Shown here: in pieces, positions 830 to 33,583 of the stretch | How positions within the stretch are numbered: the stretch's first letter is position 1 | How the letters are laid out: each line of letters begins with the position of its first letter | NCBI GenBank assembly: GCA_017467905.1 | Contig: JAFUKD010000001.1 | Location: forward strand, 1 to 64,000 | Origin: Phascolarctobacterium sp. | Lineage (GTDB): Bacteria; Bacillota; Negativicutes; Acidaminococcales; Acidaminococcaceae | Direction of reading: 5' to 3' | Length of the DNA stretch: 64,000 bases | Notes under the pieces: generated by a model | What the model was told of the DNA's origin: nothing | What the model saw: only the letters and a program-made list of their open reading frames with translations | Database searches by the model: none | Translations under genes and position numbers: made by a program

Positions 830-1576
830 TTAAGCTAAATAACCACCATCAACTACAACATCAGTACCAGTCATCCATTTGCTTCTATCACTAAGCATAA
901 ATAGAACAACACCGCTAACATCTGCAGGATACCCAATACCCAAAATATGATTTTGGTTGACTTCATCCAGATTATTGGTTTCCTCTAATTTATCAGTCAT
1001 ATTAGTGTTGACCCAACCTGGGCTGATAGTATTAACTCTTAATTTACGTTTCGCCAACTCTTTTGCAAAAGTTTTTGCAGCTATTTGCATCGCAGATTTA
1101 GCTCCTGCATACGCAAATAACCCTTTATCAGTTCTGTGCGAACGCACAGACGAAAACAGTAAAATTGAAGCTCCAGTATTAGAGTTTTTAACCTTGGAAC
1201 ATATCTGCACCAATTTTACTCCTGCCCAAAAACTTACATCTACAACTTTTCGTGCTTCATTTTCATCAAAACTTTTAAGTGGAGTCAGTCCACTTATGCC
1301 AGCAGCATGAACAGCACCATCAAGTTTACCTTTATTTTTAACAAAACCAATTATGCTTTCCTCTAATTTCTCACTGTCACATACATCAATAGCAACAACA
1401 GTAATCCTTTCCGGATACAATGTTTTTAAGGAGAAGAGTGCTTCTTCGCCCCGTGCAATAGCTAAGACATTTGCCCCTGCTTCCGCAAGCTCCATTGCAA
1501 CTTGCTTTCCCATACCAGAAGAAGCACCAGTGACAACAAAATTTTGATTTATAAAATTATAAGTTATATTACTCAT
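830..1576 (-). CDS. SDR-family oxidoreductase (FabG-like 3-oxoacyl-ACP reductase candidate)
   Basis: Classical short-chain dehydrogenase of 248 aa with an N-terminal Rossmann nucleotide site TGASSGMG (residues 16-23), the HAAG structural motif (90-93), active-site serine in FSSV (141-144) and catalytic YAGAK (Tyr156, Lys160). It ends in a GGYLA tail typical of FabG-like SDRs. It starts 1 bp after the ACP stop and is followed by the KAS III gene 12 bp on. With those partners the natural reading is reduction of 3-oxoacyl-ACP to 3-hydroxyacyl-ACP with NAD(P)H. The SDR family is certain. An alternative is a sugar or other carbonyl reductase, which context makes less likely. Confidence 0.88.
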   Translation of the reverse strand: MSNITYNFINQNFVVTGASSGMGKQVAMELAEAGANVLAIARGEEALFSLKTLYPERITVVAIDVCDSEKLEESIIGFVKNKGKLDGAVHAAGISGLTPLKSFDENEARKVVDVSFWAGVKLVQICSKVKNSNTGASILLFSSVRSHRTDKGLFAYAGAKSAMQIAAKTFAKELAKRKLRVNTISPGWVNTNMTDKLEETNNLDEVNQNHILGIGYPADVSGVVLFMLSDRSKWMTGTDVVVDGGYLA

Positions 1577-1577
1577 A

Positions 1578-1787
1578 CTATTTAATCAGGTTGTACAAAT
1601 CGCCAATGGTTTCGGCATTTCTCACATCAGAAGGCTCTACTTTTTTACCGTAAGCAGCATTAGCCATCGCCAAAAAGCTTACGAAGCTCAAAGAATCCCA
1701 CTCGTCAAGTTCATCAAGAACAGTATCCATAGTAATTTCTTCTTCGCAATCTAATAAATCAACCATTTTTTCAATAAATTGTTCCAT
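1578..1787 (-). CDS. dedicated acyl carrier protein
   Basis: Small acidic protein of 69 aa with the ACP phosphopantetheine site in WDSLSF; Ser32 is the attachment residue. It differs from the housekeeping AcpP consensus (DSLD) by having DSLS, which fits a specialised carrier. It sits between a GNAT acyltransferase gene and an SDR gene in one minus-strand transcription unit. I infer that it carries the short acyl chain built by the KAS III and SDR proteins and presents it to the GNAT. It needs a phosphopantetheinyl transferase encoded elsewhere. Confidence 0.9.
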   Translation of the reverse strand: MEQFIEKMVDLLDCEEEITMDTVLDELDEWDSLSFVSFLAMANAAYGKKVEPSDVRNAETIGDLYNLIK

Positions 1788-1802
1788 TATAAAATTCTCC
1801 TT

Positions 1803-2384
1803 TTATAAAAAATTTAAAAGCTGTTCAATTTTTTCACGTATCTTATAATAGGTATCCCTAGTCCTTATATACTCGGACTGTATTAATCCATTAACTAATA
1901 ATTCCTCAGGAAATCTAGTCTTATTTGGATTCAAACTATATCCCCATTTCTTATTTAGAGAAATGACTTTTTTGTTTTGATCTACTACATGTATATACAT
2001 AGTAGCAATATCATATTTTTTATAAAGATAGTCATTAACAAGAAGATATCCCTCGGTTAACTCTTTTGTCCCCCTATATTCCAATTCACCGACTAAAGCT
2101 CTACCTTCAATCATAATTTTTTCATTATCATCATAATCAGTAAATCCAAGAGTTCCAAAAGGTTTATCGTTAGTTTTATCTATAAAAACAAATAACCCTT
2201 GTGTTCCATCCTTCAAATATTTCTCATACCATTTTTGTTGCAACTCTAAGGTCAGTTTATAAGGTTGATTAAGAAATTTATTGAATTCTGGGTTATTACG
2301 CCATTCTATAACATTCTCAAAATATTTGGGAGAAATTTCCTCTACTATTACATACTTACCTTCTAATCTAACGTTTCTCTCCAT
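1803..2384 (-). CDS. GNAT-family N-acyltransferase, probably amino-sugar specific
   Basis: About 193 aa, RimJ/RimL-like GNAT fold (EWRNNPEFNKFLNQP near the N-terminus, a GTLGFTD strand, and VVDQNKKVISLNKKWGY near the C-terminus, typical of acetyltransferases acting on nucleotide-sugar amines or protein N-termini). I chose ATG 2384 because GGGAG lies 7 nt upstream; a longer frame would start at a TTG overlapping the aminotransferase stop. It follows the sugar aminotransferase and precedes the ACP, so it most likely acylates the 3-amino group of a dTDP-3-amino-3,6-dideoxyhexose. Whether the donor is acyl-ACP or acetyl-CoA cannot be read from the sequence. Confidence 0.78.
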   Translation of the reverse strand: MERNVRLEGKYVIVEEISPKYFENVIEWRNNPEFNKFLNQPYKLTLELQQKWYEKYLKDGTQGLFVFIDKTNDKPFGTLGFTDYDDNEKIMIEGRALVGELEYRGTKELTEGYLLVNDYLYKKYDIATMYIHVVDQNKKVISLNKKWGYSLNPNKTRFPEELLVNGLIQSEYIRTRDTYYKIREKIEQLLNFL

Positions 2385-2397
2385 TCGCCAACTCCCA

Positions 2398-3498
2398 TTA
2401 CTCAAATCTATTCAAAGCTTCAATCACATATTCAACTTCTTCGTCGGTCATACCGTAATACATCGGAATACTCAAAACTGTATTACTAATCTCTTCAGCA
2501 ATGGGTAAATCACCTTGCTCTAAGCCAAGCTCTTTATAAGCTTCTTGCAGATGCATCGGAATAGGATACTGTTTAACAGTCCCAATACCACTCTCATTTA
2601 AGTATCTTTCCAATTCATCTCGTCTATCGCAACGAATAACAAATACATGATAGATATGTTCATACTCATCTGTAGAAGCCAAAGGTAATTTGATTAAAGG
2701 ATTTGTAATACCTTGCAAATATTTTTCAGCAATTCTTTTTCTATCTGCATTCCATTTGTCAAGATGCGGTAACTTCACTCTCAAGAAAGCTGCCTGCATT
2801 TCATCTAAACGACTATTAGTTCCTTGATAAATGTGGTGATATTTATAATCAGAACCATAGTTACCTAAAGCACGCACCTTATCTGCAAGCTCTTTATCGT
2901 TAGTAACTACACAACCACCGTCACCTAATGCGCCAAGGTTCTTACCAGGATAGAAGCTGAACCCAGCAGCATCACCCAAAGTACCAACTTTTCTCCCTTT
3001 ATATCTGGTGCCATGTGCTTGCGCTGCATCTTCAATAACTTTAAGATTATATTTTTGTGCAATCGCATTAACTGCATCCATATCTGCAGCTCTACCTTGA
3101 AGATGTACTGCTATGATTGCCTTAGTATTTTCGTTTATTTTTTCTTCTATTTTTGTAACATCAATATTATAGGTTTCAATAGTAGGCTCTACAAAAACAG
3201 GCTTTGCCCCAACGAAGGAAACTGCTAAAGCTGTTGCAATATAAGTATTGGAAGGTACGATTACTTCGTCCCTTTTACCAATCCCCATAGCTTTAAGCAC
3301 CAACCACAAAGCATCTAATCCGGTTGCAACGCCAATACAATATTTGGCATCGCAATAAGCAGCAAACTCTTCCTCAAACTTTGTACACTCTTCCCCTTGG
3401 ATAAAGTAACTTCTATCCAAGACTTGGTTATAGGCTGCATCCAAGTCTTTTCTTATTTCATTATGCATTGGCAAGAAAGTTGCAAAAGGTACTTTCAT
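2398..3498 (-). CDS. fdtB: dTDP-3-oxo-6-deoxyhexose 3-aminotransferase (DegT/DnrJ/EryC1/StrS family)
   Basis: 366 aa PLP-dependent sugar aminotransferase. The [15 protein letters not shown] segment holds the PLP lysine (about Lys186); IEDAAQAHG (about 155-163) is the cofactor-binding aspartate region. The pattern is that of the FdtB/QdtB/TylB group, which converts the 3-keto-6-deoxyhexose made by FdtA/QdtA into the 3-amino sugar using glutamate. It lies 5 bp after the FdtA-type gene in the same orientation, which supports the assignment. Whether the product is Fuc3N or Qui3N depends on FdtA versus QdtA stereospecificity and cannot be decided here. Confidence 0.88.
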
Positions 3499-3503
3499 AA
3501 TAT

Positions 3504-3917
3504 CTACACTTCCTTCTTTTCGTTCTTCACAAATTCTAAGAATTCATCATAATTTCTAATGTAATCTGCTTCGTCATAAAGTTCAGAGGCGAGAACCATA
3601 AGAACTGCATCTTCGGAGAAATCAAACATTTCTCTCCACATAGAGTTAGATACATATAAACCTTCATATGGTTTTTCTAACGGGATAACTTTCTTCTCAA
3701 AACCATTGTCCAAACGAATCTTGCAACTGCCATGAATACAGATTAAGATTTGTTCCAATTTTTTATGAGCATGAAAACCTCTGGTAACATCTTTACCAGT
3801 ATCATACATGTAATAGACGCGTTTTATTTTGAACGGTATATCATTAAATTCTTCCAAAGCAACCAGCTGACCACGATTGTCACCATGTTGCTGAAAGGCG
3901 TATTTAATTACTTGCAT
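3504..3917 (-). CDS. fdtA: dTDP-4-oxo-6-deoxyglucose 3,4-ketoisomerase (FdtA/QdtA cupin)
   Basis: 137 aa single-domain cupin of the FdtA/QdtA/WxcM group. [11 protein letters not shown] holds the paired histidines used in catalysis, and [11 protein letters not shown] near the N-terminus is characteristic. It moves the keto group of dTDP-4-keto-6-deoxyglucose from C4 to C3, giving the substrate of the aminotransferase encoded next. The chosen start is ATG 3917 with GAGGTG just upstream; a TTG 12 bp earlier is possible but lacks a site. RmlA is encoded two genes upstream; RmlB (4,6-dehydratase), also needed, is not in the window. Confidence 0.86.
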
Positions 3918-3931
3918 AAAGCACCTCAAAA

Positions 3932-4903
3932 TTAATCAATCTTATCTCCAGAAAAATATTTACTTTTCCATTCCCTTGCACCATTAATAATTTCAGATAA
4001 ATACTTTTCTGCATTTTTCTCTTCTTGAAGAATATATGCGTTAAATTTCTGAATCACAGCACTATTCTTATTATGATTAAATTTCATCATTTCTCTTTCG
4101 ATTAGATACCTATATTTATATGGGTTTATTATCTTAGGAAACTTACTTTTATCAGTATGTATATACCTATCAATTATTTTTAAATCAGCTTCAAATCTAT
4201 TTCTTACGGAATGATTCTTATTGTTAGATATGCCAACTTCTGATCTATATAATATATAAGGTTCCTGTAACAACTTAATTTCGATTCCATCTTTATCCAA
4301 CAAATACTTCCACATAGGTACATCTTCTATCCATTGGTATCTTTTTAGCTCTTGGAGCAAATAATTATCAATAAGCTTACGGTTAATAAAAGTACCTGGC
4401 GCATCAATACAGTTAGAATATTTCAGACGTTTAATCAAATATTCCTTAAGGCAACCTCTACCTTGGAGCATTATTAATTGCTTGAAGTTATATCTCTTCT
4501 TATCCTGTATGATATGTTCTTTGTCAAAACATATCATCGGTGTAAGAATAAAATCTCCTTTTCGTACAAGTTCGAACACATTATTTTTATAATAAAGGTC
4601 GTCACCAGCAAGAATTTTATAGTGCTGCGTATGTATGTTACTCAACATCATAAGGTAATTAGGTACAATACCTTCATTCTTTTCTTTGGATACTATCGTA
4701 ACTCCAGCAAAAAGTTCTTTATGATTGCCAATCCAGTCCTCTACATATTTAACAGTATTATCTTTAGATGCATCATCACTTAAAACAAAATAAGTTTTTA
4801 CGTCTTTTCCATAATTTTCAATTTGGTACCTAATGCTCTCCAAATGTTCAAAGACATACTCTTCCTGATTGTAAGTAAGCATACCAAAAGTAAATTCTTG
4901 CAT
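3932..4903 (-). CDS. glycosyltransferase family 2 protein
   Basis: 323 aa, GT-A fold inverting glycosyltransferase. The N-terminal FGMLTYNQEEYV, the nucleotide-sugar site SDDASKDNT (about 42-50) and AGDDLYY (about 98-104, the DXD-like metal site) are visible. It lies between rmlA and the fdtA-type gene. I infer that it adds one sugar, possibly the acylated aminodeoxyhexose, to a lipid-linked or LPS-core acceptor at the cytoplasmic face. Acceptor and donor are unknown. Confidence 0.82.
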   Translation of the reverse strand: MQEFTFGMLTYNQEEYVFEHLESIRYQIENYGKDVKTYFVLSDDASKDNTVKYVEDWIGNHKELFAGVTIVSKEKNEGIVPNYLMMLSNIHTQHYKILAGDDLYYKNNVFELVRKGDFILTPMICFDKEHIIQDKKRYNFKQLIMLQGRGCLKEYLIKRLKYSNCIDAPGTFINRKLIDNYLLQELKRYQWIEDVPMWKYLLDKDGIEIKLLQEPYILYRSEVGISNNKNHSVRNRFEADLKIIDRYIHTDKSKFPKIINPYKYRYLIEREMMKFNHNKNSAVIQKFNAYILQEEKNAEKYLSEIINGAREWKSKYFSGDKID

Positions 4904-4922
4904 TTCTATTACTCCAAAATAT

Positions 4923-5801
4923 TTAAGATTTTATTTTTCCATCCAATATTTTCTGTAAATATTGACCATAGGAAGATTTACCATATTCTCTCGCACTTTC
5001 CGCAAGTTGTTCCTTTGTTATCCAGTTGTTGTGATATGCAATCTCTTCAAGCACAGCAATTGCAATACCAGCTCTTGTTTCAACTGCTTTAACAAATTCA
5101 CTTGCGTCATTCAAGCTGTCTACTGTTCCAGTATCGAGCCACGCATAACCGCGACCAAGCGTAACTACCTTAAGCTCATCTTGTTCTAGGTAAATTTTAT
5201 TAAGGTCAGTTATTTCAAGTTCGCCACGCTCAGAAGGTTTTATACTCTTAGCGTATTCACATACACGATTGTCATAGAAATACAATCCCGTTACTGCATA
5301 GTTGCTCTTCGGATTCTCAGGCTTTTCTTCTAAAGAAACTGCTTTACCATGCTCATCAAACTCAACAACGCCAAACCTTTCAGGGTCAGCTACATAGTAT
5401 CCAAAAACAGTAGCACCCTTATCGGAGTTTACTGCCTCCTGCAAGCAATAGGTAAGACCAGCACCATAGAAAATGTTGTCACCCAAAATCATTGCACAGC
5501 TATCGCCAGCAATGAACTCTTCACCCAAAATGAAAGCTTGCGCCAACCCATCGGGAGAAGGCTGCACCTTATAACTGAGTTTCAATCCATATCTGCTTCC
5601 GTCACCTAAAAGACGTTCAAAATTAGGTAAATCTTGAGGAGTAGAAATAATTAAAATCTCCCTAATGCCAGCAAGCATAAGGACAGATAATGGATAAAAA
5701 ATCATCGGTTTATCGTAAATGGGTAGAAGCTGTTTACTTGTTACCATAGTCAATGGATACAAACGAGTGCCACTACCACCTGCTAAAATAATTCCTTTCA
5801 T
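4923..5801 (-). CDS. rmlA: glucose-1-phosphate thymidylyltransferase RmlA
   Basis: 292 aa, full length for RmlA. The N-terminal [11 protein letters not shown] nucleotide-binding loop and [18 protein letters not shown] are diagnostic; [13 protein letters not shown] and ILGDNIFYG follow as expected. It makes dTDP-glucose from glucose-1-phosphate and dTTP, the entry step for dTDP-rhamnose and dTDP-3-aminosugars. Here it sits inside the fdtA/fdtB cluster without rmlB, rmlC or rmlD in view, so it probably supplies the amino sugar. The remaining dTDP genes are likely off-window to the left or elsewhere. Confidence 0.95.
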
Positions 5802-5813
5802 ACAAATACACTC

Positions 5814-6776
5814 CTATTTCAACTTTTTACTCCACAATGACAGCTTTCCATAAATCGTATTGATAAGCTGGCAATTCTTTGCTCCCAAAAGCAAGATTTT
5901 ATTCTTACCATTCAAGTGCTTTACTTCGCCTAAGTCATTAAAGAATTTATCTAATCTTTTTTGACTATCCGTACTTATCGTTCCGCATCCTGCGCACTGC
6001 GCGTTAACTGTTGCAATTGCGTTTTTTGTAGCGTACATTTTGCACTCTTCTATGGCTTTTGGGCAATGCTCAGTTGCAAATTCCAACCTTTCTTGATAAC
6101 CCATAAAACATTCAAATTTGTTTTGTGGGTTAAAAGAGGTTGCAATTATGCTTCCCTCTCTTTTCAGGTAATAGTAATATGCTTTTTTCATATAACCAAT
6201 CTTGTTGGCGTTATGGAAAACCTTGTATGTGGTAGCAACGTCTTCAAACCTTCTACCTACAGGAAACCTTACATCTTTCCAAATGTTTCTCTTAAAAATT
6301 TTGTTGCAGGCAGAATTATCAATTTCATCTACCAGTATTTTGTACAAAGCATCTTCGGCTTCAAAAATTTTGTCGCTGCCAAATTTGTGCCTAACTAAAG
6401 TTTTATTTGCTCTAACTTCCGTTACGTCAAAACAAACTACATCCAGTTCATTCTTTTGCATGTAATCTAATGATTCTGTGTATATGTTTTTATCAACCCA
6501 ATCATCAGAATCTATAAAAGAAATATATTCGCCTAAGGCTTTTTCCAAACCAAAGTTACGCGCGTCACTCAACCCACCGTTCTTTTTATGAATTACTCTT
6601 ACGCGTTCATCCTTTTGTGCGTATTCATCACAAATCTTTCCGCAGTTATCCGGTGAACCGTCATCTACGAGGATGAGCTCAAAATCTTTAAAGGTTTGAT
6701 TTAAGATGGAATCCACGCATTTATGAATATATTGTTCAACTTTATAGACAGGTACGATAATTGAAAGTTTAGGCAT
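5814..6776 (-). CDS. glycosyltransferase family 2 protein
   Basis: 320 aa GT2 enzyme. The first 110 residues carry the classical motifs: LSIIVPVYKVEQYIHKCVDSIL at the start, LVDDGSPDNCGKICDEYA around residue 36, and FIDSDDWVD (about 89-97, DXD-type metal site). The C-terminal part is less conserved and defines the acceptor. It is 12 bp upstream of rmlA in the same unit. It resembles capsule/LPS glycosyltransferases of the WcaA/EpsJ type; exact linkage unknown. Confidence 0.86.
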   Translation of the reverse strand: MPKLSIIVPVYKVEQYIHKCVDSILNQTFKDFELILVDDGSPDNCGKICDEYAQKDERVRVIHKKNGGLSDARNFGLEKALGEYISFIDSDDWVDKNIYTESLDYMQKNELDVVCFDVTEVRANKTLVRHKFGSDKIFEAEDALYKILVDEIDNSACNKIFKRNIWKDVRFPVGRRFEDVATTYKVFHNANKIGYMKKAYYYYLKREGSIIATSFNPQNKFECFMGYQERLEFATEHCPKAIEECKMYATKNAIATVNAQCAGCGTISTDSQKRLDKFFNDLGEVKHLNGKNKILLLGAKNCQLINTIYGKLSLWSKKLK

Positions 6777-6792
6777 TACTTCGCCTCCAAAT

Positions 6793-7539
6793 TTATTTAT
6801 TCAAATAATCCAGCTTAATGTATTTGTTCATTGTATAGTTAGCGTAGTTGGCGCATAACATAAAACCAAGCTTGCCTTCAAGAATGCCCAATTTCAAAAT
6901 ATACATTTTGAAAAAGGCAAAGGCAGGTCTGATGATAATATCAAAAATAAAATTACAGGACTTACCTTCCTTCTTGCTCTTTTCTGCAGCAAGGGTGGAA
7001 TACTGGTTCATCTTGCGCAGGTATTGGTCCCAAGTTTCATAAGTGTAGTGCAGCATGTCCTTGGTAAGCTTTTTATCTTTATGTTGATGCACAATCTTAG
7101 GATGAACAAAGCCTTCCACATAACTGCCTTCGCGTGGCATCAGGCGGCATACCCAGTCCGGACTTAAAGGACCATGTTTGACAAGCTTGTGTTTAAAATG
7201 ATTGATGCGCCTTACCCAGTAACCATATTTGTCACCTTTGGCAACAACTGCTTTAATCTCTTCGCACAACGCAGGGGTACATCTTTCGTCTGCGTCTATA
7301 AAGAAAATCCAATCACAAGAAGCTTGCTGGATAGCGAAGGTTTGCTGCCCGCCCCAATCTCCGTTCATGCTTCTGTTAATAACTTTTGCCCCAAGGCCTT
7401 CGGATATTTCCTTGGTTCTATCTTCACTATTGTCATCAATTACGATTACTTCGTCTGCGAAGGAACAGCTTTCAATGCATTCCTGCATATTTTTTTCTTC
7501 GTTCTTTGCTAAAATCAAAACGCTTATTTTATTTTGCAT
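6793..7539 (-). CDS. LPS-core type glycosyltransferase family 2 protein (WaaE/KdtX-like)
   Basis: 248 aa. SVLILAKNEEKNMQECIES, VIVIDDNSEDRT (about 32-43) and FFIDADERCT (about 78-87) are the GT2 motifs, and the following segments (GGQQTFAIQQA, EGFVHPKI) match the WaaE/KdtX group of core-region glucosyl/glycosyltransferases. That group is found in organisms with lipopolysaccharide, supporting a diderm host. It is the first gene of the cluster, downstream of a possible extended -10 promoter. The exact sugar transferred is not predictable. Confidence 0.84.
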   Translation of the reverse strand: MQNKISVLILAKNEEKNMQECIESCSFADEVIVIDDNSEDRTKEISEGLGAKVINRSMNGDWGGQQTFAIQQASCDWIFFIDADERCTPALCEEIKAVVAKGDKYGYWVRRINHFKHKLVKHGPLSPDWVCRLMPREGSYVEGFVHPKIVHQHKDKKLTKDMLHYTYETWDQYLRKMNQYSTLAAEKSKKEGKSCNFIFDIIIRPAFAFFKMYILKLGILEGKLGFMLCANYANYTMNKYIKLDYLNK

Positions 7540-25709: not shown

Positions 25710-26195
25710 TTAGAACATAATATTTCCAGGTTCGTAATCCACCGTCGTCTTTACAAAAGCAATCTCGTTGCAGTAGGGATATTGGGGACAGTACACACAT
25801 TCCTTCCATACCTTTTGAGGAAGCTTCTCCTTAGCGGTTTCAATATAATTACATTTGGCAAAAAATCCCGGCTGGTAAGTAAGGGTGAAGAACATCTTTA
25901 CACCGCGTTCAACACCTTCCTTTTCCAACAGCTCCACTATCTTTCTGCCAATGCCTGTGCATTTTAACTCCGGGTCAACAGCAAGGGAACGAATCTCTGC
26001 CAAGCGGTCCCACACAAAATGCAAAGCACCGCAGCCAATCAAGCGATTATTTTCTACTGCGATGATGTAGTCACGCAAGTTCTCATAAATTGAATTACGA
26101 GAACGAGGAAGCATCAAGCCTTCCTTAGCATAATCGTTAAGCAGCTTATGGATTTTTTCTACATCGTCAAATTTTGCGGTTCTATATACAATCAT
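25710..26195 (-). CDS. N-acetyltransferase, single-domain ArgA-like (N-acetylglutamate synthase candidate)
   Basis: 161 aa GNAT. LIGCGALHFVWDRLAEIRSLAVDPELKCTGIGRKIVELL contains the acetyl-CoA site (core GIGRKIV) and, with GFFAKCNYIETAKEKLP, follows the layout of short ArgA proteins such as mycobacterial ArgA. Such proteins make N-acetylglutamate for arginine synthesis. It has extra C-terminal cysteines (YCPQYPYC) that could bind a metal (inference). The gene is alone, downstream of the hyf-like operon and a degenerate palindrome. Confidence 0.8.
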   Translation of the reverse strand: MIVYRTAKFDDVEKIHKLLNDYAKEGLMLPRSRNSIYENLRDYIIAVENNRLIGCGALHFVWDRLAEIRSLAVDPELKCTGIGRKIVELLEKEGVERGVKMFFTLTYQPGFFAKCNYIETAKEKLPQKVWKECVYCPQYPYCNEIAFVKTTVDYEPGNIMF

Positions 26196-26342: not shown

Positions 26343-27071
26343 CTACATACGTTCGCGCAACAAATCCGCCGCCGCACACAACGCCACAATCATGGCACTT
26401 GGCCTGGGGGGGCATCCCGGCACTGCGATATCAACAGGTACCACATCAGCAGCCTTCCCCACGATTGCATAGGTATTGCCATAGGTTTCGCCGCCGGCAG
26501 CGCAAGCACCGCACGCCATAACAAGGCGGGGCTCCGGCATGGCATCGTAGGTCATGCGCAAAGCTTGTTCCAAATTGCGGGTAACAACGCCGGTTATCAT
26601 AATCATATCTGCATGACGAGGCGAAGCAACAAAAGCAATACCATAGCGATGCAAATCGTAAATAGGATTGCTTAAAGCGCACATTTCAAAATCGCAGGCG
26701 TTACAGCTTCCTGCATCAACATGGCGCACATGCAGGGAACGACCAAGCTTAGCAGTTACCAGCTCCTTAACCTCAGCCTGAGCTTCCGTCAGAATTTCTG
26801 CCAAGACCTCTTTATTGCTGTGCTGCAGCACTCCTTCGGCGCAGGCTTCTACACAACGTCCACAAAAGATACATTTTTTATAATCAATGCTTGGCTTGCC
26901 GCCATCCATACTTACTGCCTTTACAGGACAAGCTTCAATACACTTGCCACAGCAGGTATAGTTCTTGCCATACATAACCTTTAACTGGCCACGCATACGT
27001 TTATCGCCAGTGGTCTTAACACCTTCAGTTACTATTCTTTTCGCCAAAATGGCTTCTATCATCTTTAACAC
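26343..27071 (-). CDS. hyfI: fused 2x[4Fe-4S] ferredoxin / [NiFe]-hydrogenase small subunit (HyfH-HyfI-like)
   Basis: 242 aa. Residues 30-80 form a dicluster ferredoxin: the second motif is complete (C67, C70, C73, C77), while the first has C41, C44 and C48 but Tyr38 in the usual first-Cys position, with Cys40 as a possible substitute. Residues 110-240 are a NuoB/HycG-like small subunit with proximal-cluster cysteines C123, C126, C190 and C220 (GSCNAC, CGACA, GCPPRP). In E. coli these are separate proteins (HyfH, HyfI). It would pass electrons to the large subunit. GTG 27071 with GGGGG 7 nt upstream is the start; it follows the large-subunit stop by 11 bp. Confidence 0.85.
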   Translation of the reverse strand: MLKMIEAILAKRIVTEGVKTTGDKRMRGQLKVMYGKNYTCCGKCIEACPVKAVSMDGGKPSIDYKKCIFCGRCVEACAEGVLQHSNKEVLAEILTEAQAEVKELVTAKLGRSLHVRHVDAGSCNACDFEMCALSNPIYDLHRYGIAFVASPRHADMIMITGVVTRNLEQALRMTYDAMPEPRLVMACGACAAGGETYGNTYAIVGKAADVVPVDIAVPGCPPRPSAMIVALCAAADLLRERM

Positions 27072-27082
27072 AATAGTTCCCC

Positions 27083-28591
27083 CTATCGGTCAAGGCAAGC
27101 GTAACATAATTCAAAGCTTTTATTTATTAACGGGAAATCCGGAATAATATCTCCCTGCACCGCTACGGTCAAAGCAGGCCAATTGGGATAGGATGCAGAA
27201 CGCACGAACAATCTGTCAATACGTCCCTGCTCGTCCAACATCAGCCAATGAACATTGTCACCGCGTGCAGATTCACTAATGCCCCAGCTTCCCTCCAAGG
27301 TGCGCAGGCTTCCTAAGTCCACACATAAATCCTTGCTATTATCGTAACGCAGAACGCTAATCGCTTGGCGCACAAGCTTCAAGCTTTGAGCAACCTCGGC
27401 TATGCGCACCTTTATGCGGGCTTCCACGTCACCGGATTTCTCTGTTACTACATCAAAATCAAGGTCATCATAAATACCGTAGCCCATATCCTTACGGCTA
27501 TCACGCTGCACACCGCTGGCACGCGCGCCCACGCCAACCATTGCAAGGTCAAAGGCAGTACGCTCCTTAATAATACCAGTGGTTCGTACACGGTTGATAA
27601 AATTATTCTGCTCCCACATAATGTGTTCAACAACAGCATATTCCCTCTCAACCTCACGCAGCACTTCTTCTATTTCTTCTAATATATGGTCATCTACATC
27701 ATACTTAACGCCGCCGGGAACAATCAAGCCTCGCAGGAAGCGATTGCCTGCCAGCACCTCGTTTAACTGCATCAAATATTCCTTCAAGCGGGAGCCCATG
27801 CTGATTATGGGAGAAAAGCCTACGCCTGCGCATACATTACCCGTATCACCAGCATGGTTGTACAAGCGTTCCAGCTCTGCCGCCATAACACGAATGTACC
27901 AGGCGCGGTCAGGAACCTTCACATCAGAAAGCTTTTCTACCGCCTGACAAAAGCTTAAAGTATTGGCAACGGTGCAGGCTCCGCAAATGCGCTCCACTAT
28001 GGGCAAAGCTTCCCAAGGAGTTTTGCCTTCCACAGCCTTTTCAATACCACGGTGGGTATAAAATAATTTGGCATCCAGCTGGAGCATTGCCTCACCTGCT
28101 TGGCTAAAGCGGAAGTGTCCTGGTTCGATGATACCTGCGTGAATGGGACCGACAGGAACTTCAAAAAGCCCTTCACCCTTCGCGGCAATCATATCGTATT
28201 CCCGCTTGCCACGCACTTTAATATTCACCGGCAAGCGTTTACGCAATGGGTTAAAGCCGTTGGGGAAGGTTTCGTGCAGTACTAAGGGTCGTAAATCAGG
28301 ATGACCTTCGGGAATAAAGCCAAACATATCGTGCAGCTCGCGCTCGTACCATGCCGCTGCAGGCAACAAGGTAGTTAAACAGGGATAGCTAAGCTCGCCA
28401 TCCGCAGGGAACTCTGCCTTCACAGTGTCTAAGGTACGTTTATCCTTATTATAGAACAGGCAATAGATGGCAAGTCCGCCGCCACGATGAGTTTCATCTG
28501 CGCCGAACATGGCTGCCAAAGGATGCTTGCCGCCGTCGCCGCAAATATTAGCAGCGCCACGTAAGTTTTCAGGTTTTACATGCATCACCAT
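27083..28591 (-). CDS. hyfG: [NiFe]-hydrogenase group 4-like large subunit (HyfG/HycE-like, NuoC-NuoD fusion)
   Basis: 502 aa. About residues 1-125 are NuoC-like and the rest is NuoD/HycE-like (VGPIHAGIIEPGHFRF at 147-162). The nickel-ligand pairs are retained: N-terminal C203/C206 (RICGAC) and C-terminal C496/C499 (SFELCYACLDR). The usual DPCxxC is changed: Asp-Pro is replaced by Glu-Leu. The protein ends directly at the Arg after this motif, so no C-terminal extension needs a maturation protease. It probably catalyses H2 evolution or oxidation coupled to ion transport. Hyp maturation genes are not in view. Confidence 0.86.
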   Translation of the reverse strand: MVMHVKPENLRGAANICGDGGKHPLAAMFGADETHRGGGLAIYCLFYNKDKRTLDTVKAEFPADGELSYPCLTTLLPAAAWYERELHDMFGFIPEGHPDLRPLVLHETFPNGFNPLRKRLPVNIKVRGKREYDMIAAKGEGLFEVPVGPIHAGIIEPGHFRFSQAGEAMLQLDAKLFYTHRGIEKAVEGKTPWEALPIVERICGACTVANTLSFCQAVEKLSDVKVPDRAWYIRVMAAELERLYNHAGDTGNVCAGVGFSPIISMGSRLKEYLMQLNEVLAGNRFLRGLIVPGGVKYDVDDHILEEIEEVLREVEREYAVVEHIMWEQNNFINRVRTTGIIKERTAFDLAMVGVGARASGVQRDSRKDMGYGIYDDLDFDVVTEKSGDVEARIKVRIAEVAQSLKLVRQAISVLRYDNSKDLCVDLGSLRTLEGSWGISESARGDNVHWLMLDEQGRIDRLFVRSASYPNWPALTVAVQGDIIPDFPLINKSFELCYACLDR

Positions 28592-28592
28592 C

Positions 28593-30068
28593 TTAGCCTC
28601 CTATTACCTTTACAGCATTATTCAAAAGATTATTAATCCAAGTGATTTTTTCAAAGCCTGCGCCTACTATGCAGGTCAAAAGCAACAAGGTTGCCAGCAC
28701 AGGTACATCTATCTTGCCAAGCAAATCTCCCAAGGGTTTACGCTTGGCAGTATCACACAGCATACGCATACCATGATACAAAATACCAATGAGCACGCCG
28801 GTTAAGAGAACAATCAGCAAACCGCCTGCAATCCAATGGTCGTGACGGAACATATCCGTCAGAATGTAGAACTTACTAAAGAACAAGCCCATGGGAGGCA
28901 AGCCTAAAATGCCCAGCATACCTGTCAACCAGAAGGTTGCCGTATGAGGAACATCGTGCATCATACCGTGGATGCGCATCATATTACGGGTTTGGTATTC
29001 TTGGATGATGGTACCTGCAACATAGAACAGCACGAACTTAATCATGGCGTGGCTATACATGTGAAGCAGCACTGCCTTCAAGGAGAAAGCGGTGAATACA
29101 CCAATACCAGCCATCATAATGCCAATGTTTTCCATGGAAGAATAAGCAAGAATACGTTTTACGTCACGCTGCACCACCACGAAGGGTACGGCAACGGCAA
29201 CGGTCAGCACTGCAAAAAACAGTACCATGCTACCCATCAGCTCTGCTCCCGCAGTGGGCAACAGTATTACCAGATTGCGCATCATTACATACAGGGCGCA
29301 GGTACACAGCGCACCGGAAAGCATACCACTGGTTAAAGAAGGAGCTTCCGCATAGGCATCGGGCAGCCAAGTGTGCATGGGTGCCATACCAATTTTGGTA
29401 CCATAGCCAATCAAAATAAACATCAATGCCAATTTAGTTAAGGCAGGGTCAAGCATGGTAGCGTGATTATGCAGGTATAACCAGCTTAATGCTCTATCAC
29501 TACCCAAGGCACTAATCTGCGCATAATACAAAATCAAAGTGCCTAAAAGCGCCAAGCAGATACCTACGGTACAAACCATAACGTACTTCCAGGTTGCTTC
29601 CAACGCCGCACGGGTAAACTTAAAGGAAATAAGCAGTGCGGAAATCAAGGTTGTCGCCTCGATTGCAACCCACATCAAGCCCAAGTTCTTTACCAGCAGC
29701 ACGAGGAACATTGTCCAGACGAACATCTGCATTAAAGCAAAGTAGCGTCCCGTCTGTAAACGCTCCCCTTTCAAAACGCCACAAATCTCTTCACGGGTCA
29801 GGTAGGAGCGCGCCGTCCAGCTTGCAGCTAAATATAATGTAGTAATTATCAGAAGCATCCACGCGCTTAAAGCATCAATATAAAAATACTCGCTGTCAAA
29901 AGGATGAGCAGGATTCAGATTATACAGAATAGCTGCCACCAAAAGCCCAACACCTGTCGCGGTCAAACGGTGCATCCAATGCAGGGTGTTGTTTTCAAAG
30001 CTTCCCTTCACTGCCAAAACTGCACAAATAGGGGGCAAAAGTAAAAGCACAATAATTAAATCAAGCAT
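28593..30068 (-). CDS. hyfF: membrane antiporter-like subunit, HyfF-like
   Basis: 491 aa, highly hydrophobic (about 13-14 transmembrane segments). MRP/NuoN-type features are visible: a glutamate in the fifth helix region (LMWVAIEATTLISALLISFK), a central lysine region (KIGMAPMHTWLPDAYAEAPS) and DVKRILAYSSMENIG. It is one of two antiporter-like subunits in this operon and probably carries protons or Na+ across the inner membrane. It starts 4 bp after hyfE; hyfG follows after 1 bp. Confidence 0.87.
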   Translation of the reverse strand: MLDLIIVLLLLPPICAVLAVKGSFENNTLHWMHRLTATGVGLLVAAILYNLNPAHPFDSEYFYIDALSAWMLLIITTLYLAASWTARSYLTREEICGVLKGERLQTGRYFALMQMFVWTMFLVLLVKNLGLMWVAIEATTLISALLISFKFTRAALEATWKYVMVCTVGICLALLGTLILYYAQISALGSDRALSWLYLHNHATMLDPALTKLALMFILIGYGTKIGMAPMHTWLPDAYAEAPSLTSGMLSGALCTCALYVMMRNLVILLPTAGAELMGSMVLFFAVLTVAVAVPFVVVQRDVKRILAYSSMENIGIMMAGIGVFTAFSLKAVLLHMYSHAMIKFVLFYVAGTIIQEYQTRNMMRIHGMMHDVPHTATFWLTGMLGILGLPPMGLFFSKFYILTDMFRHDHWIAGGLLIVLLTGVLIGILYHGMRMLCDTAKRKPLGDLLGKIDVPVLATLLLLTCIVGAGFEKITWINNLLNNAVKVIGG

Positions 30069-30072
30069 ATCC

Positions 30073-30702
30073 TCACCCCTTCAACTTGTTCAGCTCGTTG
30101 GTATCGGTAGTTTTGAAAGATACGCGCAGGCGGCTGGTCAAAATAACCAAAATCACAACGGCAATCAATACGTCGAGGAAAACACCCAGCTCGATAATCA
30201 CGGGCAAGCCTTCGGTCATAACCAAACCGAACAGGTAGATACCGTTTTCCAAGGTAATCAGGCCAATCATCTGCATAATGGCACGACTGCGCATTACAAT
30301 CAGAATCAAGCCTGTCATAATCATAAACAAGGAGGACGCTAAAATATCGCGACCTTCAAAATGGGGCAGCAGGCTATCAAAAACCATATAGCTTAACGCC
30401 AAGGCACAGGCTGCTACCGCTGTTGAATAGTTAACATTAATATCACTGACAATCTCAGATTCATCCTGCAGGTTACGCACAACCTTCAAGATAGCGTAAG
30501 GAATGAAGATAACCTTAACCAAAATTGTCAGGACACCGGGTAAAAAGGCGTGCAGCCCTCCCCCGTGGCTCATGCCGATAACCAGGCAAGCCGCTGCAAT
30601 CAGTGCAGATTGTACGCCAAGACAGTAAACACCGCGGCGCAGGTCCATAATGCGAGTTTGCAGGAATACTACAAACATCAGCGCTACTACTAAATACTCC
30701 AC
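30073..30702 (-). CDS. hyfE: membrane subunit, HyfE-like (NuoK-related)
   Basis: 209 aa with about six to seven hydrophobic helices. The C-terminal half (MQMIGLITLENGIYLFGLVMTEGLP) contains the helix glutamate typical of NuoK/MrpC/HyfE proteins. It is in the conserved gene order hyfB-C-E-F. It is an integral membrane part of the ion-translocating arm. Confidence 0.87.
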   Translation of the reverse strand: MEYLVVALMFVVFLQTRIMDLRRGVYCLGVQSALIAAACLVIGMSHGGGLHAFLPGVLTILVKVIFIPYAILKVVRNLQDESEIVSDINVNYSTAVAACALALSYMVFDSLLPHFEGRDILASSLFMIMTGLILIVMRSRAIMQMIGLITLENGIYLFGLVMTEGLPVIIELGVFLDVLIAVVILVILTSRLRVSFKTTDTNELNKLKG

Positions 30703-30713
30703 AGCTTACCTCC

Positions 30714-31601
30714 TTAACGCGCTACAACTGCCAACAGCATCATAATGCCTGCAGCCGCCAAATAAATGCGCACTTTAAACAAACGCATTTTATTATTCAA
30801 GGTTTCCATCACAGCAACACCTGCCGCACCCAACAGAACCTTTACCGCCAAGGGCAGGTTCAAAGGCAAATACAACAGGGAGAAAATCAAAAGGAAAACC
30901 AAAAGCTTCAATTGACTAGCCCAATGGATAAGGCTTAACAATCTACCGGAATATTCCAGAGTCATACATTCATGCACCATGGTCAATTCCAAATGGGTAT
31001 CAGGGTTGTCAACAGGAATACGGGCGTTCTCCGCCAACATCACCAGGAAGAAGGCAATACCCGTCAGCACACTTGCTACAGTTAAATTCACTTCATTAGG
31101 ATTCAAGGTCATCCCAGTCAAGGAAGTACTGCCTGTATGCAAAGCATTGGACAGAATACCAAGCATAATTACCGGTTCTACAAATGCCGCAATATAAACC
31201 TCGCGGCTGCCGCCCATTCCTCCAAAAGCAGTTGCCGCATCCATGGAAGAAACCGCCATGAAGAAACGTCCAAGAGCAAAGAGATATACGAAAACAAAAA
31301 CGTCACCAAAATTTGCCTTACCACCAATGAAGTTAGGCAGCATGCTGGCAGCAGCCAAGGTAGTGATGAAGTACACACAAGGAGCTGCTACGAAGATGAT
31401 GCTGGTATTGGGAGTGAGCATGGTAGGCTTGCGCCACCATTTGTAAATATCGTAGTATTCCTGAAAAATGCTGGAGCCAATACGATTTTGCATAAAGGCT
31501 TTCAGCTTTTTCACAATACCGCTTACCAGGGGAGCAAGCAACAGCAAGATTACAGCCTGACCCAGGCAATATAATAAATTCATGAGTACATCATTCATCA
31601 T
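30714..31601 (-). CDS. hyfC: membrane subunit, HyfC/HycD-like (NuoH-related)
   Basis: 295 aa with eight predicted membrane helices. AFMQNRIGSSIFQEYYDIYKWWRKPT (cytoplasmic loop near residues 35-60) and VDNPDTHLELTMVHECMTLEYSGR (near 195-218) are the acidic NuoH/HycD loop motifs that line the interface with the hydrogenase module. It overlaps hyfB by 4 bp. Confidence 0.9.
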   Translation of the reverse strand: MMNDVLMNLLYCLGQAVILLLLAPLVSGIVKKLKAFMQNRIGSSIFQEYYDIYKWWRKPTMLTPNTSIIFVAAPCVYFITTLAAASMLPNFIGGKANFGDVFVFVYLFALGRFFMAVSSMDAATAFGGMGGSREVYIAAFVEPVIMLGILSNALHTGSTSLTGMTLNPNEVNLTVASVLTGIAFFLVMLAENARIPVDNPDTHLELTMVHECMTLEYSGRLLSLIHWASQLKLLVFLLIFSLLYLPLNLPLAVKVLLGAAGVAVMETLNNKMRLFKVRIYLAAAGIMMLLAVVAR

Positions 31602-33583
31602 TTATACATCGCCCCCCAAATCAGAACTATAACCATTGCCACCATAACGTAGCTCACATAAAGCCTTACGCTGCCCTGCTGCAAACGGCGCAGGAAAGCA
31701 GAAGCACTTACAAAATATTTATTGAACGGCTGATATAATTTTTCGGTAATCATATCAGGAATTTCTAATTTATAGAACAGCTTGCGACCAAAATAGGAAT
31801 GATCATTTTGAGTATAGGTACGTTCCCGTTTGGGCTTCAACAGGTAATCGAAGGCACGACGCACCGGCTTGGAAAAGCCTGTTGCGGAATATTGCTGACG
31901 TGCAGTGGGATAAGTGCCACAGTTCCAAGTAACATCCTTTGGGATGCAAATCTTCTGACCCACAACAAAGTACAGCACTACCACACCGATAATACCCAAA
32001 ACAACAGCCACCAGAATAGGATTATAGGTTACGAAAGTACCACTGCCACTCCAAATCAAGCGACCGCCTACCCCTAACACCATATAATCACTCATATGAA
32101 GAGCATTGCACAGCAAATATATTACATAACCGGGGAAGATACCGCAAATAAGCACCAACGCACTGCTCATTCCCATGGCAGCAAGCATAAAGGTATCGGA
32201 TTCGTGAGCACGCTCTACCAATTTACTGCGGGCAGCTCCCAAGAAGGTAATGCCAAAGTAACGGACGAAGCAGCCCAAAGCCAAAGCTCCCGTCAATCCC
32301 ATGAGCACGAACGCCAAAGCAGTCCACAGGCGCACATCCTGCGTAAGTCCGTTATGCCCCAGAGTGATGAAGCTTTGCAGCACCATCCATTCACCAACAA
32401 AGCCATTGGTCAAGGGCAAAGCCGCCAAGCCCATGGCGCCGATAAAGGTAAAGATGGCAGTATAAGGCATCTTATTAGCCAAGCCGCCAAAGAGTTCTAA
32501 ATTCTTACTGCCTGTTCCGTGCATAATACTGCCAGCACTCATGAACATCAGAACCTTCATAATAGAATGGTTGAAAGCATGCAGCAACGCAGCCAAGAAA
32601 CCTATTTGACACCAGTTGGAATCGGTAACAACCTTTAGAAGCATGCCACAACCAAAGGCAGCGAAGATGATACCCATGTTTTCCACAGAGGAATACGCCA
32701 GCACACGTTTAATATCCACTTCCATTTGCGCATACAGCACACCCAAGAAAGCAGAGAGCAGACCAATCACCATAACGATAACCGCCCACCAGTAATTCCA
32801 TTCCGGAAGGAAGTCGAACATAAAACGTCCGAAGCCATACAGAGCAATCTTCAACATAACACCGCTCATCAGAGCAGAAACATGACTGGGCGCAGCAGGG
32901 TGAGCATTGGGCAGCCATACATGCAGGGGCACAAAACCAGCCTTCAAGGCAAAGCCAATGAAGGCAGCTGCAAAAACTGCGTGCAGCCAGCCACCTTCCA
33001 AGGTATTATTAGCCATAGCCGCAAAGGTAAAAGAAGCGCTATGGGTTGCGGTCAGGAAGAAGGCAATCATAATTGCCGCAGTACCAATGGAAGTCATTAC
33101 CAAATATTGGTAAGCAGCATTCCAGGTAGTACGTTTTTCTGCCTCGTGGTTCACCAAAAGGAAGGAAGCAACCGCCATTATCTCCCAGAACAGCAGGAAG
33201 CTTAACGCATCTCCTGCCAAAAGCACCAATACCATGGAGCAGATGAACAGGTTCCACAAGCCATTAAGCATGCGTAAGCGTTTACCCTCGTAGCTTTCGG
33301 CATAGCCAAGAGCGTAAATGCTGGCAATGATTCCGGCTAAACCAGTAAGCATTAAAAAGGCAGCACTCCAGCCGTCGCAGGTAAGGACATAGCTTCCCCA
33401 CTTCACCGCCCGCACAGGAATATCACTTGCCAAAATAGACCACGCATTAAAAAATACTAAGCCACTGCCCATAACAGCAGCAAGATTTGCTACATAATGC
33501 GCCATAATCTGCCTTTGATGAGGCGCGAACAAAGTTAAAATGCCTATGCTATAACAAAGCACAGCCGCAAAAAACATATCCAT
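31598..33583 (-). CDS. hyfB: membrane antiporter-like subunit, HyfB-like
   Basis: 661 aa with about 14-16 membrane helices. It contains the NuoL/HyfB signatures LLFWEIMAVASFLLVNHE (glutamate helix), AGFVPLHVWLPNAHPAAPSHVSALMSGVMLK (lysine/histidine channel) and DIKRVLAYSSVENMGIIFAAFG. First gene of the operon; AGGTG precedes ATG 33583. The upstream 150 bp region is AT-rich and may hold the promoter, but I could not identify boxes with confidence. Confidence 0.89.
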   Translation of the reverse strand: MDMFFAAVLCYSIGILTLFAPHQRQIMAHYVANLAAVMGSGLVFFNAWSILASDIPVRAVKWGSYVLTCDGWSAAFLMLTGLAGIIASIYALGYAESYEGKRLRMLNGLWNLFICSMVLVLLAGDALSFLLFWEIMAVASFLLVNHEAEKRTTWNAAYQYLVMTSIGTAAIMIAFFLTATHSASFTFAAMANNTLEGGWLHAVFAAAFIGFALKAGFVPLHVWLPNAHPAAPSHVSALMSGVMLKIALYGFGRFMFDFLPEWNYWWAVIVMVIGLLSAFLGVLYAQMEVDIKRVLAYSSVENMGIIFAAFGCGMLLKVVTDSNWCQIGFLAALLHAFNHSIMKVLMFMSAGSIMHGTGSKNLELFGGLANKMPYTAIFTFIGAMGLAALPLTNGFVGEWMVLQSFITLGHNGLTQDVRLWTALAFVLMGLTGALALGCFVRYFGITFLGAARSKLVERAHESDTFMLAAMGMSSALVLICGIFPGYVIYLLCNALHMSDYMVLGVGGRLIWSGSGTFVTYNPILVAVVLGIIGVVVLYFVVGQKICIPKDVTWNCGTYPTARQQYSATGFSKPVRRAFDYLLKPKRERTYTQNDHSYFGRKLFYKLEIPDMITEKLYQPFNKYFVSASAFLRRLQQGSVRLYVSYVMVAMVIVLIWGAMYK

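What the first reader, a model, noticed from the sequence alone, without database searches (positions are those of the whole stretch)
26343..33583. Hyf-like hydrogenase operon with fused ferredoxin/small subunit and altered C-terminal nickel motif
The large subunit keeps both CxxC pairs for nickel, but the C-terminal DPCxxC is replaced by ELCYAC and the protein stops right after it. The small subunit is fused to a dicluster ferredoxin whose first cluster motif lacks the usual first cysteine (Tyr38, with Cys40 next to it). Only two antiporter-like subunits (HyfB, HyfF) are present and no formate dehydrogenase or hyp genes are adjacent. This may be a distinct group 4 subtype or a non-hydrogenase relative with nickel ligands retained.
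Basis: partly seen in the sequence, partly recalled or inferred. Interest (0 to 1): 0.6.

Follow-up and report, generated by a model that had tools for sequence, protein, structure and literature searches.

The report
Hydrogenase-like ion pump lacking hydrogenase makers
A gut bacterium (Phascolarctobacterium) carries a well-preserved, complex I-like membrane machine that looks like a nickel-iron hydrogenase, but it and many relatives lack the genes needed to build the nickel-iron centre, so the machine probably pumps ions using a different, still unknown reaction.

Summary
In detail: an intact six-gene hyfBCEFG(HI) operon at 33583-26343 (- strand) with all four NiFe-type cysteines, DPCxxC replaced by ELCYAC, and a ferredoxin-small subunit fusion. 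About 50 relatives share the end DFPLINKSFELCY[AS]C. They form one family with cysteine-less relatives (DFPLINKSFNLSYAG), including the Cupriavidus metallidurans hyfBCEFGI operon. With active-site columns removed, the family separates from all DPC hydrogenases and complex I by a 100/100 branch. Every member examined carries a HyfC loop signature, THLELTMxHE, absent from the hydrogenases compared. The host genome (99.7% complete) has no HypC, HypD, HypE or HypF. In the tree, 17 of 51 four-cysteine members lie in HypD-less genomes, against 0 of 19 DPC hydrogenases, yet the operon is under strong purifying selection (dN/dS 0.03-0.07). So this is very probably not a [NiFe] hydrogenase but a ferredoxin-linked ion-translocating complex of the Ehr / HydDB-4f kind that keeps a Cys4 site. 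The acceptor is unknown; the host lacks a UbiA/MenA-type prenyltransferase, so quinone is doubtful here. The Hyp-independent, graded-cysteine picture and the HyfC signature look new; suspicion that such operons are not hydrogenases is partly in the literature.

The parts
31598..33583 (-). HyfB-like antiporter subunit (661 aa)
   Evidence: NF005086 hydrogenase 4 subunit B 7e-174; best PDB HycC 7z0s_C; E134, K214, H335, H339, K343 invariant and K245 in 54 of 55 operons
30714..31601 (-). HyfC (ND1/NuoH-like) membrane anchor (295 aa)
   Evidence: PF00146; HycD 7z0s_D 3.7e-29
30969..31010 (-). HyfC TMH5-6 loop signature DNPDTHLELTMVHE (residues 198-211): two family-specific His and a 3-residue insertion against HycD
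   Evidence: present in all family members examined, absent from the DPC hydrogenases compared
30073..30702 (-). HyfE-like membrane subunit (209 aa)
   Evidence: NF008556 hydrogenase 4 membrane subunit 1.6e-21
28593..30068 (-). HyfF-like antiporter subunit (491 aa)
   Evidence: NF005044 hydrogenase 4 subunit F 1e-98; K225, H340, K344 invariant, E137 in 54 of 55
27083..28591 (-). HyfG: fused 30 kDa + 49 kDa (hydrogenase large subunit-like) protein, 502 aa
   Evidence: PF00329 + PF00346; best PDB HycE 7z0s_E by sequence and fold
27974..27985 (-). HyfG L1 cysteine pair C203-G-A-C206
27095..27112 (-). HyfG L2 motif E494-L-C496-Y-A-C499 in place of DPCxxC
26343..27071 (-). Fusion of dicluster ferredoxin (HyfH-like) and small subunit (HyfI/NuoB-like), 242 aa (GTG start as listed)
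   Evidence: Fer4 models + PF01058; proximal-cluster CxxC C123/C126 as in MbhJ/HycG
26841..26960 (-). Ferredoxin cluster motifs of the fusion (Y38 to C77); first ligand Cys replaced by Tyr38, with C40/C41

Best explanation
The operon encodes a complex I-like, ion-translocating oxidoreductase, not a [NiFe] hydrogenase. Electrons from reduced ferredoxin enter at the fused two-cluster domain, pass the proximal [4Fe-4S] cluster of the small-subunit domain and reach the cavity in HyfG, where a hydrogenase would hold NiFe and complex I binds quinone. The cavity is bounded by the HyfG end DFPLINKSFELCYAC and the HyfC loop THLELTMxHE. Reduction of a so far unidentified acceptor there drives ion pumping by HyfC/E and the two antiporter subunits HyfB and HyfF (the direction could be reversed). 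In this branch the four cysteines persist and probably bind a metal or cluster that does not need the Hyp machinery; in sister branches they were lost piece by piece. Shown here: architecture, conservation, absence of hyp genes, monophyly, selection, conserved pumping residues. Inferred: electron entry from ferredoxin, pumping, the nature of the Cys4 occupant, the acceptor.
For: Own genome, 99.7% complete: no HypD, HypC (11), HypF (10) or HypE (71) over cut-off, while controls ring. In the same bacterial family, genomes at least 90% complete with this operon: 0 of 14 have HypD; those with only a DPC-type group 4 enzyme: 11 of 11 have it, usually a few kb away. In the tree: 17/51 ELC members in HypD-less genomes against 0/19 DPC hydrogenases, at least 6 changes of hyp status within ELC. 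Family branch 100/100 with active-site columns removed, one change of label. Sister branch and Cupriavidus/Bradyrhizobium homologues lack the cysteine pairs yet keep DFPLxNKSFN and the same six genes; intermediates lost some (L117, L140, L146, L147). HyfC signature in all members examined, in none of the hydrogenases. The canopy Asp of DPC, described as strictly conserved in hydrogenases and complex I (PMC9474812), is Glu here and Asn in the sister branch. dN/dS 0.03-0.07. Pumping residues conserved in 55 operons.
Against: All four cysteines are invariant in nearly all ELC members, which argues for a metal there; many ELC genomes do have hyp genes; the AlphaFold model is closest to HycE (TM 0.92); no activity data exist. 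The hyp-less genomes are mostly one lineage (Acidaminococcales), so plain counts overstate independence. HypA/HypB were not searched.
Confidence: 0.77

Rival explanations
1. A narrower version of the best explanation: a ferredoxin:menaquinone oxidoreductase. The cavity binds a quinone as in complex I or Fpo, and the cysteines are structural or an extra electron relay.
For: Relation to complex I; most hyp-less relatives outside Acidaminococcales have a UbiA-family prenyltransferase; ESARG in place of EAPRG is also found in Nqo4.
Against: The window genome, P. faecium and all Acidaminococcales carriers tested lack any UbiA-family prenyltransferase (controls 14/14), so they should not make menaquinone and would have to take it up whole; the quinone-binding Tyr87 of Nqo4 (named from memory) falls next to the first cysteine and is not conserved.
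Confidence: 0.3
2. A real hydrogenase with a Hyp-independent metal centre in the Cys4 site (for example mononuclear Ni or an Fe-S cluster) that evolves H2.
For: Four cysteines, the RGxE region, the beta1-beta2 loop Glu, the canopy Arg (mostly) and a hydrogenase-type CxxC proximal cluster are kept.
Against: No precedent known to me; sister branches with the same operon and motifs lack the cysteines; the host already has [FeFe] hydrogenases.
Confidence: 0.08
3. An ordinary [NiFe] hydrogenase whose hyp genes are missing only because assemblies are incomplete.
For: Four NiFe-type cysteines; HydDB-based work calls such operons hydrogenases (PMC9888536).
Against: HypC, D, E and F are all absent from genomes 95-100% complete; HypD- and HypE-less carriers include single-contig ones (G061, G078, G252).
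Confidence: 0.03
4. A narrower version of the best explanation: a sulfane/polysulfide or other disulfide reductase working like Pyrococcus MBS.
For: The family shows partial cysteine loss similar to MBS, which keeps two of four (PMC7684303; L117); this would explain function without Ni or quinone.
Against: The proximal cluster keeps the spaced CxxC of hydrogenases, whereas MBS activity rests on a three-Cys cluster.
Confidence: 0.12

Closest known systems
E. coli Hyd-3/Hyd-4 (FHL-1/FHL-2, group 4a)
   Same: Subunit homology B, C, E, F, G, H, I; HyfG fold (TM 0.92 to HycE); 30+49 kDa fusion.
   Different: No FdhF/HycB module beside it, no HyfD/HyfA, no C-terminal extension, ELC for DPC, different HyfC loop, no Hyp genes; other side of a 100/100 branch.
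HydDB group 4f ('putative formate-coupled'), e.g. Desulfitobacterium hafniense ACL22288-93
   Same: Six-gene complex in an anaerobic Bacillota member (PMC9888536).
Ehr (energy-converting hydrogenase-related) complexes and Cupriavidus metallidurans CH34 hyfBCEFGI
   Same: Same six-gene set, DFPLINKSFNLSYAGHDL end and same HyfC signature in CH34; its authors thought a hydrogenase role unlikely (PMC2864759).
   Different: Ehr are defined by lack of the Ni/Fe ligands (PMC6349859); here all four cysteines remain.
Pyrococcus furiosus MBS
   Same: Group 4-derived, ferredoxin-driven, not a hydrogenase; lost part of the cysteines.
   Different: MBS has an Mrp-type membrane arm and a three-Cys proximal cluster; here a Hyf-type membrane arm and a CxxC proximal motif.

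Membership tests
[NiFe] hydrogenase | Four cysteines in two CxxC pairs | tested here: met
   C203/C206 and C496/C499
[NiFe] hydrogenase | C-terminal DPCxxC with canopy Asp | tested here: not met
   ELCYAC; every hydrogenase in the comparison set has Asp at this place
[NiFe] hydrogenase | HypC/D/E/F for the Fe(CN)2CO group in the genome | tested here: not met
[NiFe] hydrogenase | H2 activity, Ni and CN/CO bands | not testable with these tools
   needs biochemistry
Group 4a formate hydrogenlyase | Placement with HycE; FDH module; C-terminal extension | tested here: not met
   tree; no FDH next to operon, no extension
HydDB group 4f | Phylogenetic placement with HydDB 4f reference sequences | not tested
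   reference sequences not held; only the D. hafniense label in PMC9888536
Ehr complexes | Loss of the Ni/Fe-coordinating residues | tested here: not met
   four cysteines kept
Ehr complexes | Shared family with cysteine-less hyfBCEFGI operons | tested here: met
   (that these operons are the published Ehr set was not checked against Ehr sequences)
Complex I / Fpo (quinone reductase) | No NiFe cysteines; quinone available | tested here: not met
   cysteines present; no UbiA-family gene in the host
MBS sulfane reductase | Shortened three-Cys proximal cluster loop | tested here: not met
   SCNACDFEM keeps CxxC

The most novel reading that the evidence does not exclude
The conserved Cys4 site holds a new, Hyp-independent cofactor (for example a rubredoxin-like Fe or an Fe-S cluster) that, with the two invariant histidines of the HyfC loop, reduces an acceptor that is neither protons nor quinone. 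This would make the enzyme a further working type in the complex I superfamily beside hydrogenase, sulfane reductase and quinone reductase, and the main ferredoxin-oxidising pump candidate of Phascolarctobacterium lineages that lack Rnf.
Probability: 0.25. Interest if true: 0.8.

Novelty: new variant of a known kind. Interest (0 to 1): 0.6.

Why it matters
Operons of this sort are labelled H2-evolving group 4f hydrogenases in HydDB-based work (for example PMC9888536), so gut and environmental H2 budgets could count enzymes that make no H2. The family also offers a graded series from four cysteines to none in one operon type, which makes the step from hydrogenase to non-hydrogenase in complex I evolution testable. 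In lineages without Rnf, Ech or a quinone of their own it may be the main ferredoxin-driven ion pump of a common human gut genus.

Tried and rejected
Assembly gaps as the cause of missing hyp genes: rejected (many genomes 97-100% complete, some single-contig). Pseudogene or decay: rejected (dN/dS, intact ORFs). G046, an ELC genome with a HypD fragment, also holds an Ech-like fragment at a contig end and is 4% contaminated; it was not counted as hyp-less. Neighbourhood search for a redox partner: nothing conserved across families; only a GNAT acetyltransferase downstream in Acidaminococcaceae and an ArsR-like regulator at the operon end in 8 other loci. The geometry of the four cysteines could not be measured because model coordinates are not exposed. 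A review of energy-converting hydrogenases (PMC11636919) is not held. A paper search for Phascolarctobacterium + hydrogenase + Hyf gave nothing. Mycobacterium tuberculosis Rv0081-Rv0087 came to mind as a possible relative (memory only); papers were listed but no sequence was tested.

Full report
What is there. The window comes from a Phascolarctobacterium relative: the closest named records are Phascolarctobacterium MAGs and P. faecium DSM 14760. Six ORFs on the minus strand from 33583 to 26343 form one tight operon: hyfB, hyfC, hyfE, hyfF, hyfG and a ferredoxin-hyfI fusion. HyfG (502 aa) carries C203/C206 and C496/C499; the usual DPCxxC is ELCYAC. The Tyr38 oddity in the ferredoxin is limited to the genus-level relatives seen; other Phascolarctobacterium lineages have the full motif. 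Stopping just after the last cysteine pair is normal for MbhL/Ech-type subunits. The ferredoxin-small subunit fusion is also a trait of most relatives.

Relatives. Genome searches found the same six-gene operon in many genomes of the class and phylum. Aligning them showed one family with the shared HyfG end DFPLINKSF. The larger part, here called ELC, has four invariant cysteines (RxCxxC and SFELCY[AS]C). A second part has none of them (ERISGDETF... and SFNLSYAGNDL). Single sequences lie between: L117 lost the first Cys of each pair, L140 one Cys of L2, L147 the second Cys of L1, L146 three of four. The megaplasmid operon hyfBCEFGI of Cupriavidus metallidurans CH34 and one of Bradyrhizobium end in DFPLINKSFNLSYAGHDL and DFPLCNKSFNCSYSGHDL and belong to the type without the cysteine pairs. 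The genome authors of CH34 already thought a role in hydrogen-based growth very unlikely (PMC2864759).

Phylogeny. A careful maximum-likelihood tree of 86 large subunits, with the L1, L2, canopy and neighbouring motif columns removed, puts all 19 DPC hydrogenases (HycE and MbhL included) and complex I Nqo4 on one side of a 100/100 branch and the whole DFPLINKSF family on the other. The cysteine-less part is one clade (100/99). L146 and L147 are long branches and their exact place is unsure.

A second signature. [quoted passage not shown] In this family it reads (D/N)PxTHLELTMxHE, with a three-residue insertion against HycD and two invariant histidines. It is present in all family members examined, with four cysteines or none, and in none of the 15 hydrogenase HyfC homologues compared. 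A DNA pattern for it hit 70 of 152 loci, all of this family. So what defines the family is not the cysteines.

No machinery for the NiFe site. The window genome (99.7% complete) has no HypD, HypC, HypF or HypE over cut-off; the weak HypF and HypE hits are short and probably reflect domains shared with other enzymes (inference). In the same bacterial family, among genomes at least 90% complete, 14 of 14 with this operon lack HypD and 11 of 11 with only a DPC-type group 4 enzyme have HypD, often about 5 kb away together with hypF and hypC (Fisher p 2e-7, which ignores common descent). Across the tree set 17 of 51 ELC members are in HypD-less genomes, 0 of 19 DPC hydrogenases (p 0.003, same caveat). 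Allowing for descent, hyp status changes at least six times within ELC. HypD-less carriers include single-contig genomes (G061, G078, G252). The genes are not decaying: dN/dS is 0.03-0.07 for all six genes against a congener. The key residues of the antiporter subunits and HyfC are invariant or nearly so in 55 operons.

Active-site reading. Compared with HycE, the family changes the canopy aspartate of DPC (Asp529), which the FHL paper calls strictly conserved, to Glu in ELC and Asn in the cysteine-less part; EAPRG becomes mostly ES[AP]RG in ELC; HSHLL becomes YNHxGD in ELC. The beta1-beta2 loop Glu, the canopy Arg (Lys or Gln in three ELC-side members) and a hydrogenase-like CxxC proximal cluster are kept. 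The AlphaFold model (pLDDT 87) is closest to HycE (TM 0.92), then complex I NuoCD.

What it may do. Carriers in Acidaminococcales have no UbiA-family prenyltransferase (0 of 9, same; controls 14/14), so they should not make menaquinone; carriers elsewhere mostly have one. The window genome and several close relatives lack NQR2/RnfD/RnfE proteins; P. faecium has one. The window genome has four [FeFe] hydrogenase hits, so H2 can be handled without this complex. The most economical reading is a ferredoxin-linked ion pump whose acceptor is not protons; quinone is possible in many carriers but doubtful in this one. The Cys4 site probably holds something that does not need Hyp proteins.

Relation to the literature. 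D. hafniense ACL22288-93, a multi-subunit complex, was labelled HydDB group 4f (PMC9888536). [quoted passage not shown] Ehr complexes are described as relatives lacking the residues that bind Ni and Fe (PMC6349859). MBS shows that a group 4 relative can drop part of the cysteines and change its reaction (PMC7684303). In the papers I could read I found neither the Hyp-less distribution of the four-cysteine type nor the HyfC signature.

Limits. The two narrower rivals (menaquinone, sulfane sulfur) are special cases of the best explanation, so their confidences are parts of its 0.77, not additions to it.

Noticed in passing
window 830-7539 (-): Low-GC stretch (about 35% against 46%) with glycosyltransferases, a sugar nucleotidyltransferase, a DegT aminotransferase, a GNAT and a short-chain dehydrogenase: probably a horizontally acquired surface polysaccharide cluster.
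   Followed up: partly
window 25710-26195 (-): GNAT N-acetyltransferase (NF005840) directly downstream of the operon; the same gene follows the operon, median gap 66 bp, in 8 Acidaminococcaceae loci.
   Followed up: partly
L048 6051-6386; also L049, L050, L051, L052, L055, L056, L140: ArsR-like regulator directly at or overlapping the end of the operon in 8 loci outside Acidaminococcaceae.
   Followed up: partly
L061, L062, L063 (G084, G115, G080): A different group 4 branch with L1 motif ERVCSLCSNNH instead of CGxC but intact DPC; in L061 and L062 next to very long HyfB-like ORFs of about 1270 codons.
   Followed up: no
L051 (G083:C33): Two ELC operons in tandem in one genome, one of each sub-branch; one has the canopy Arg replaced by Lys (ESSKG), as in L056.
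   Followed up: no
L112 (G439): Group 4 large subunit with ERICAICDHSE and FDHCYGC instead of DPC in a HypD-positive genome.
   Followed up: no
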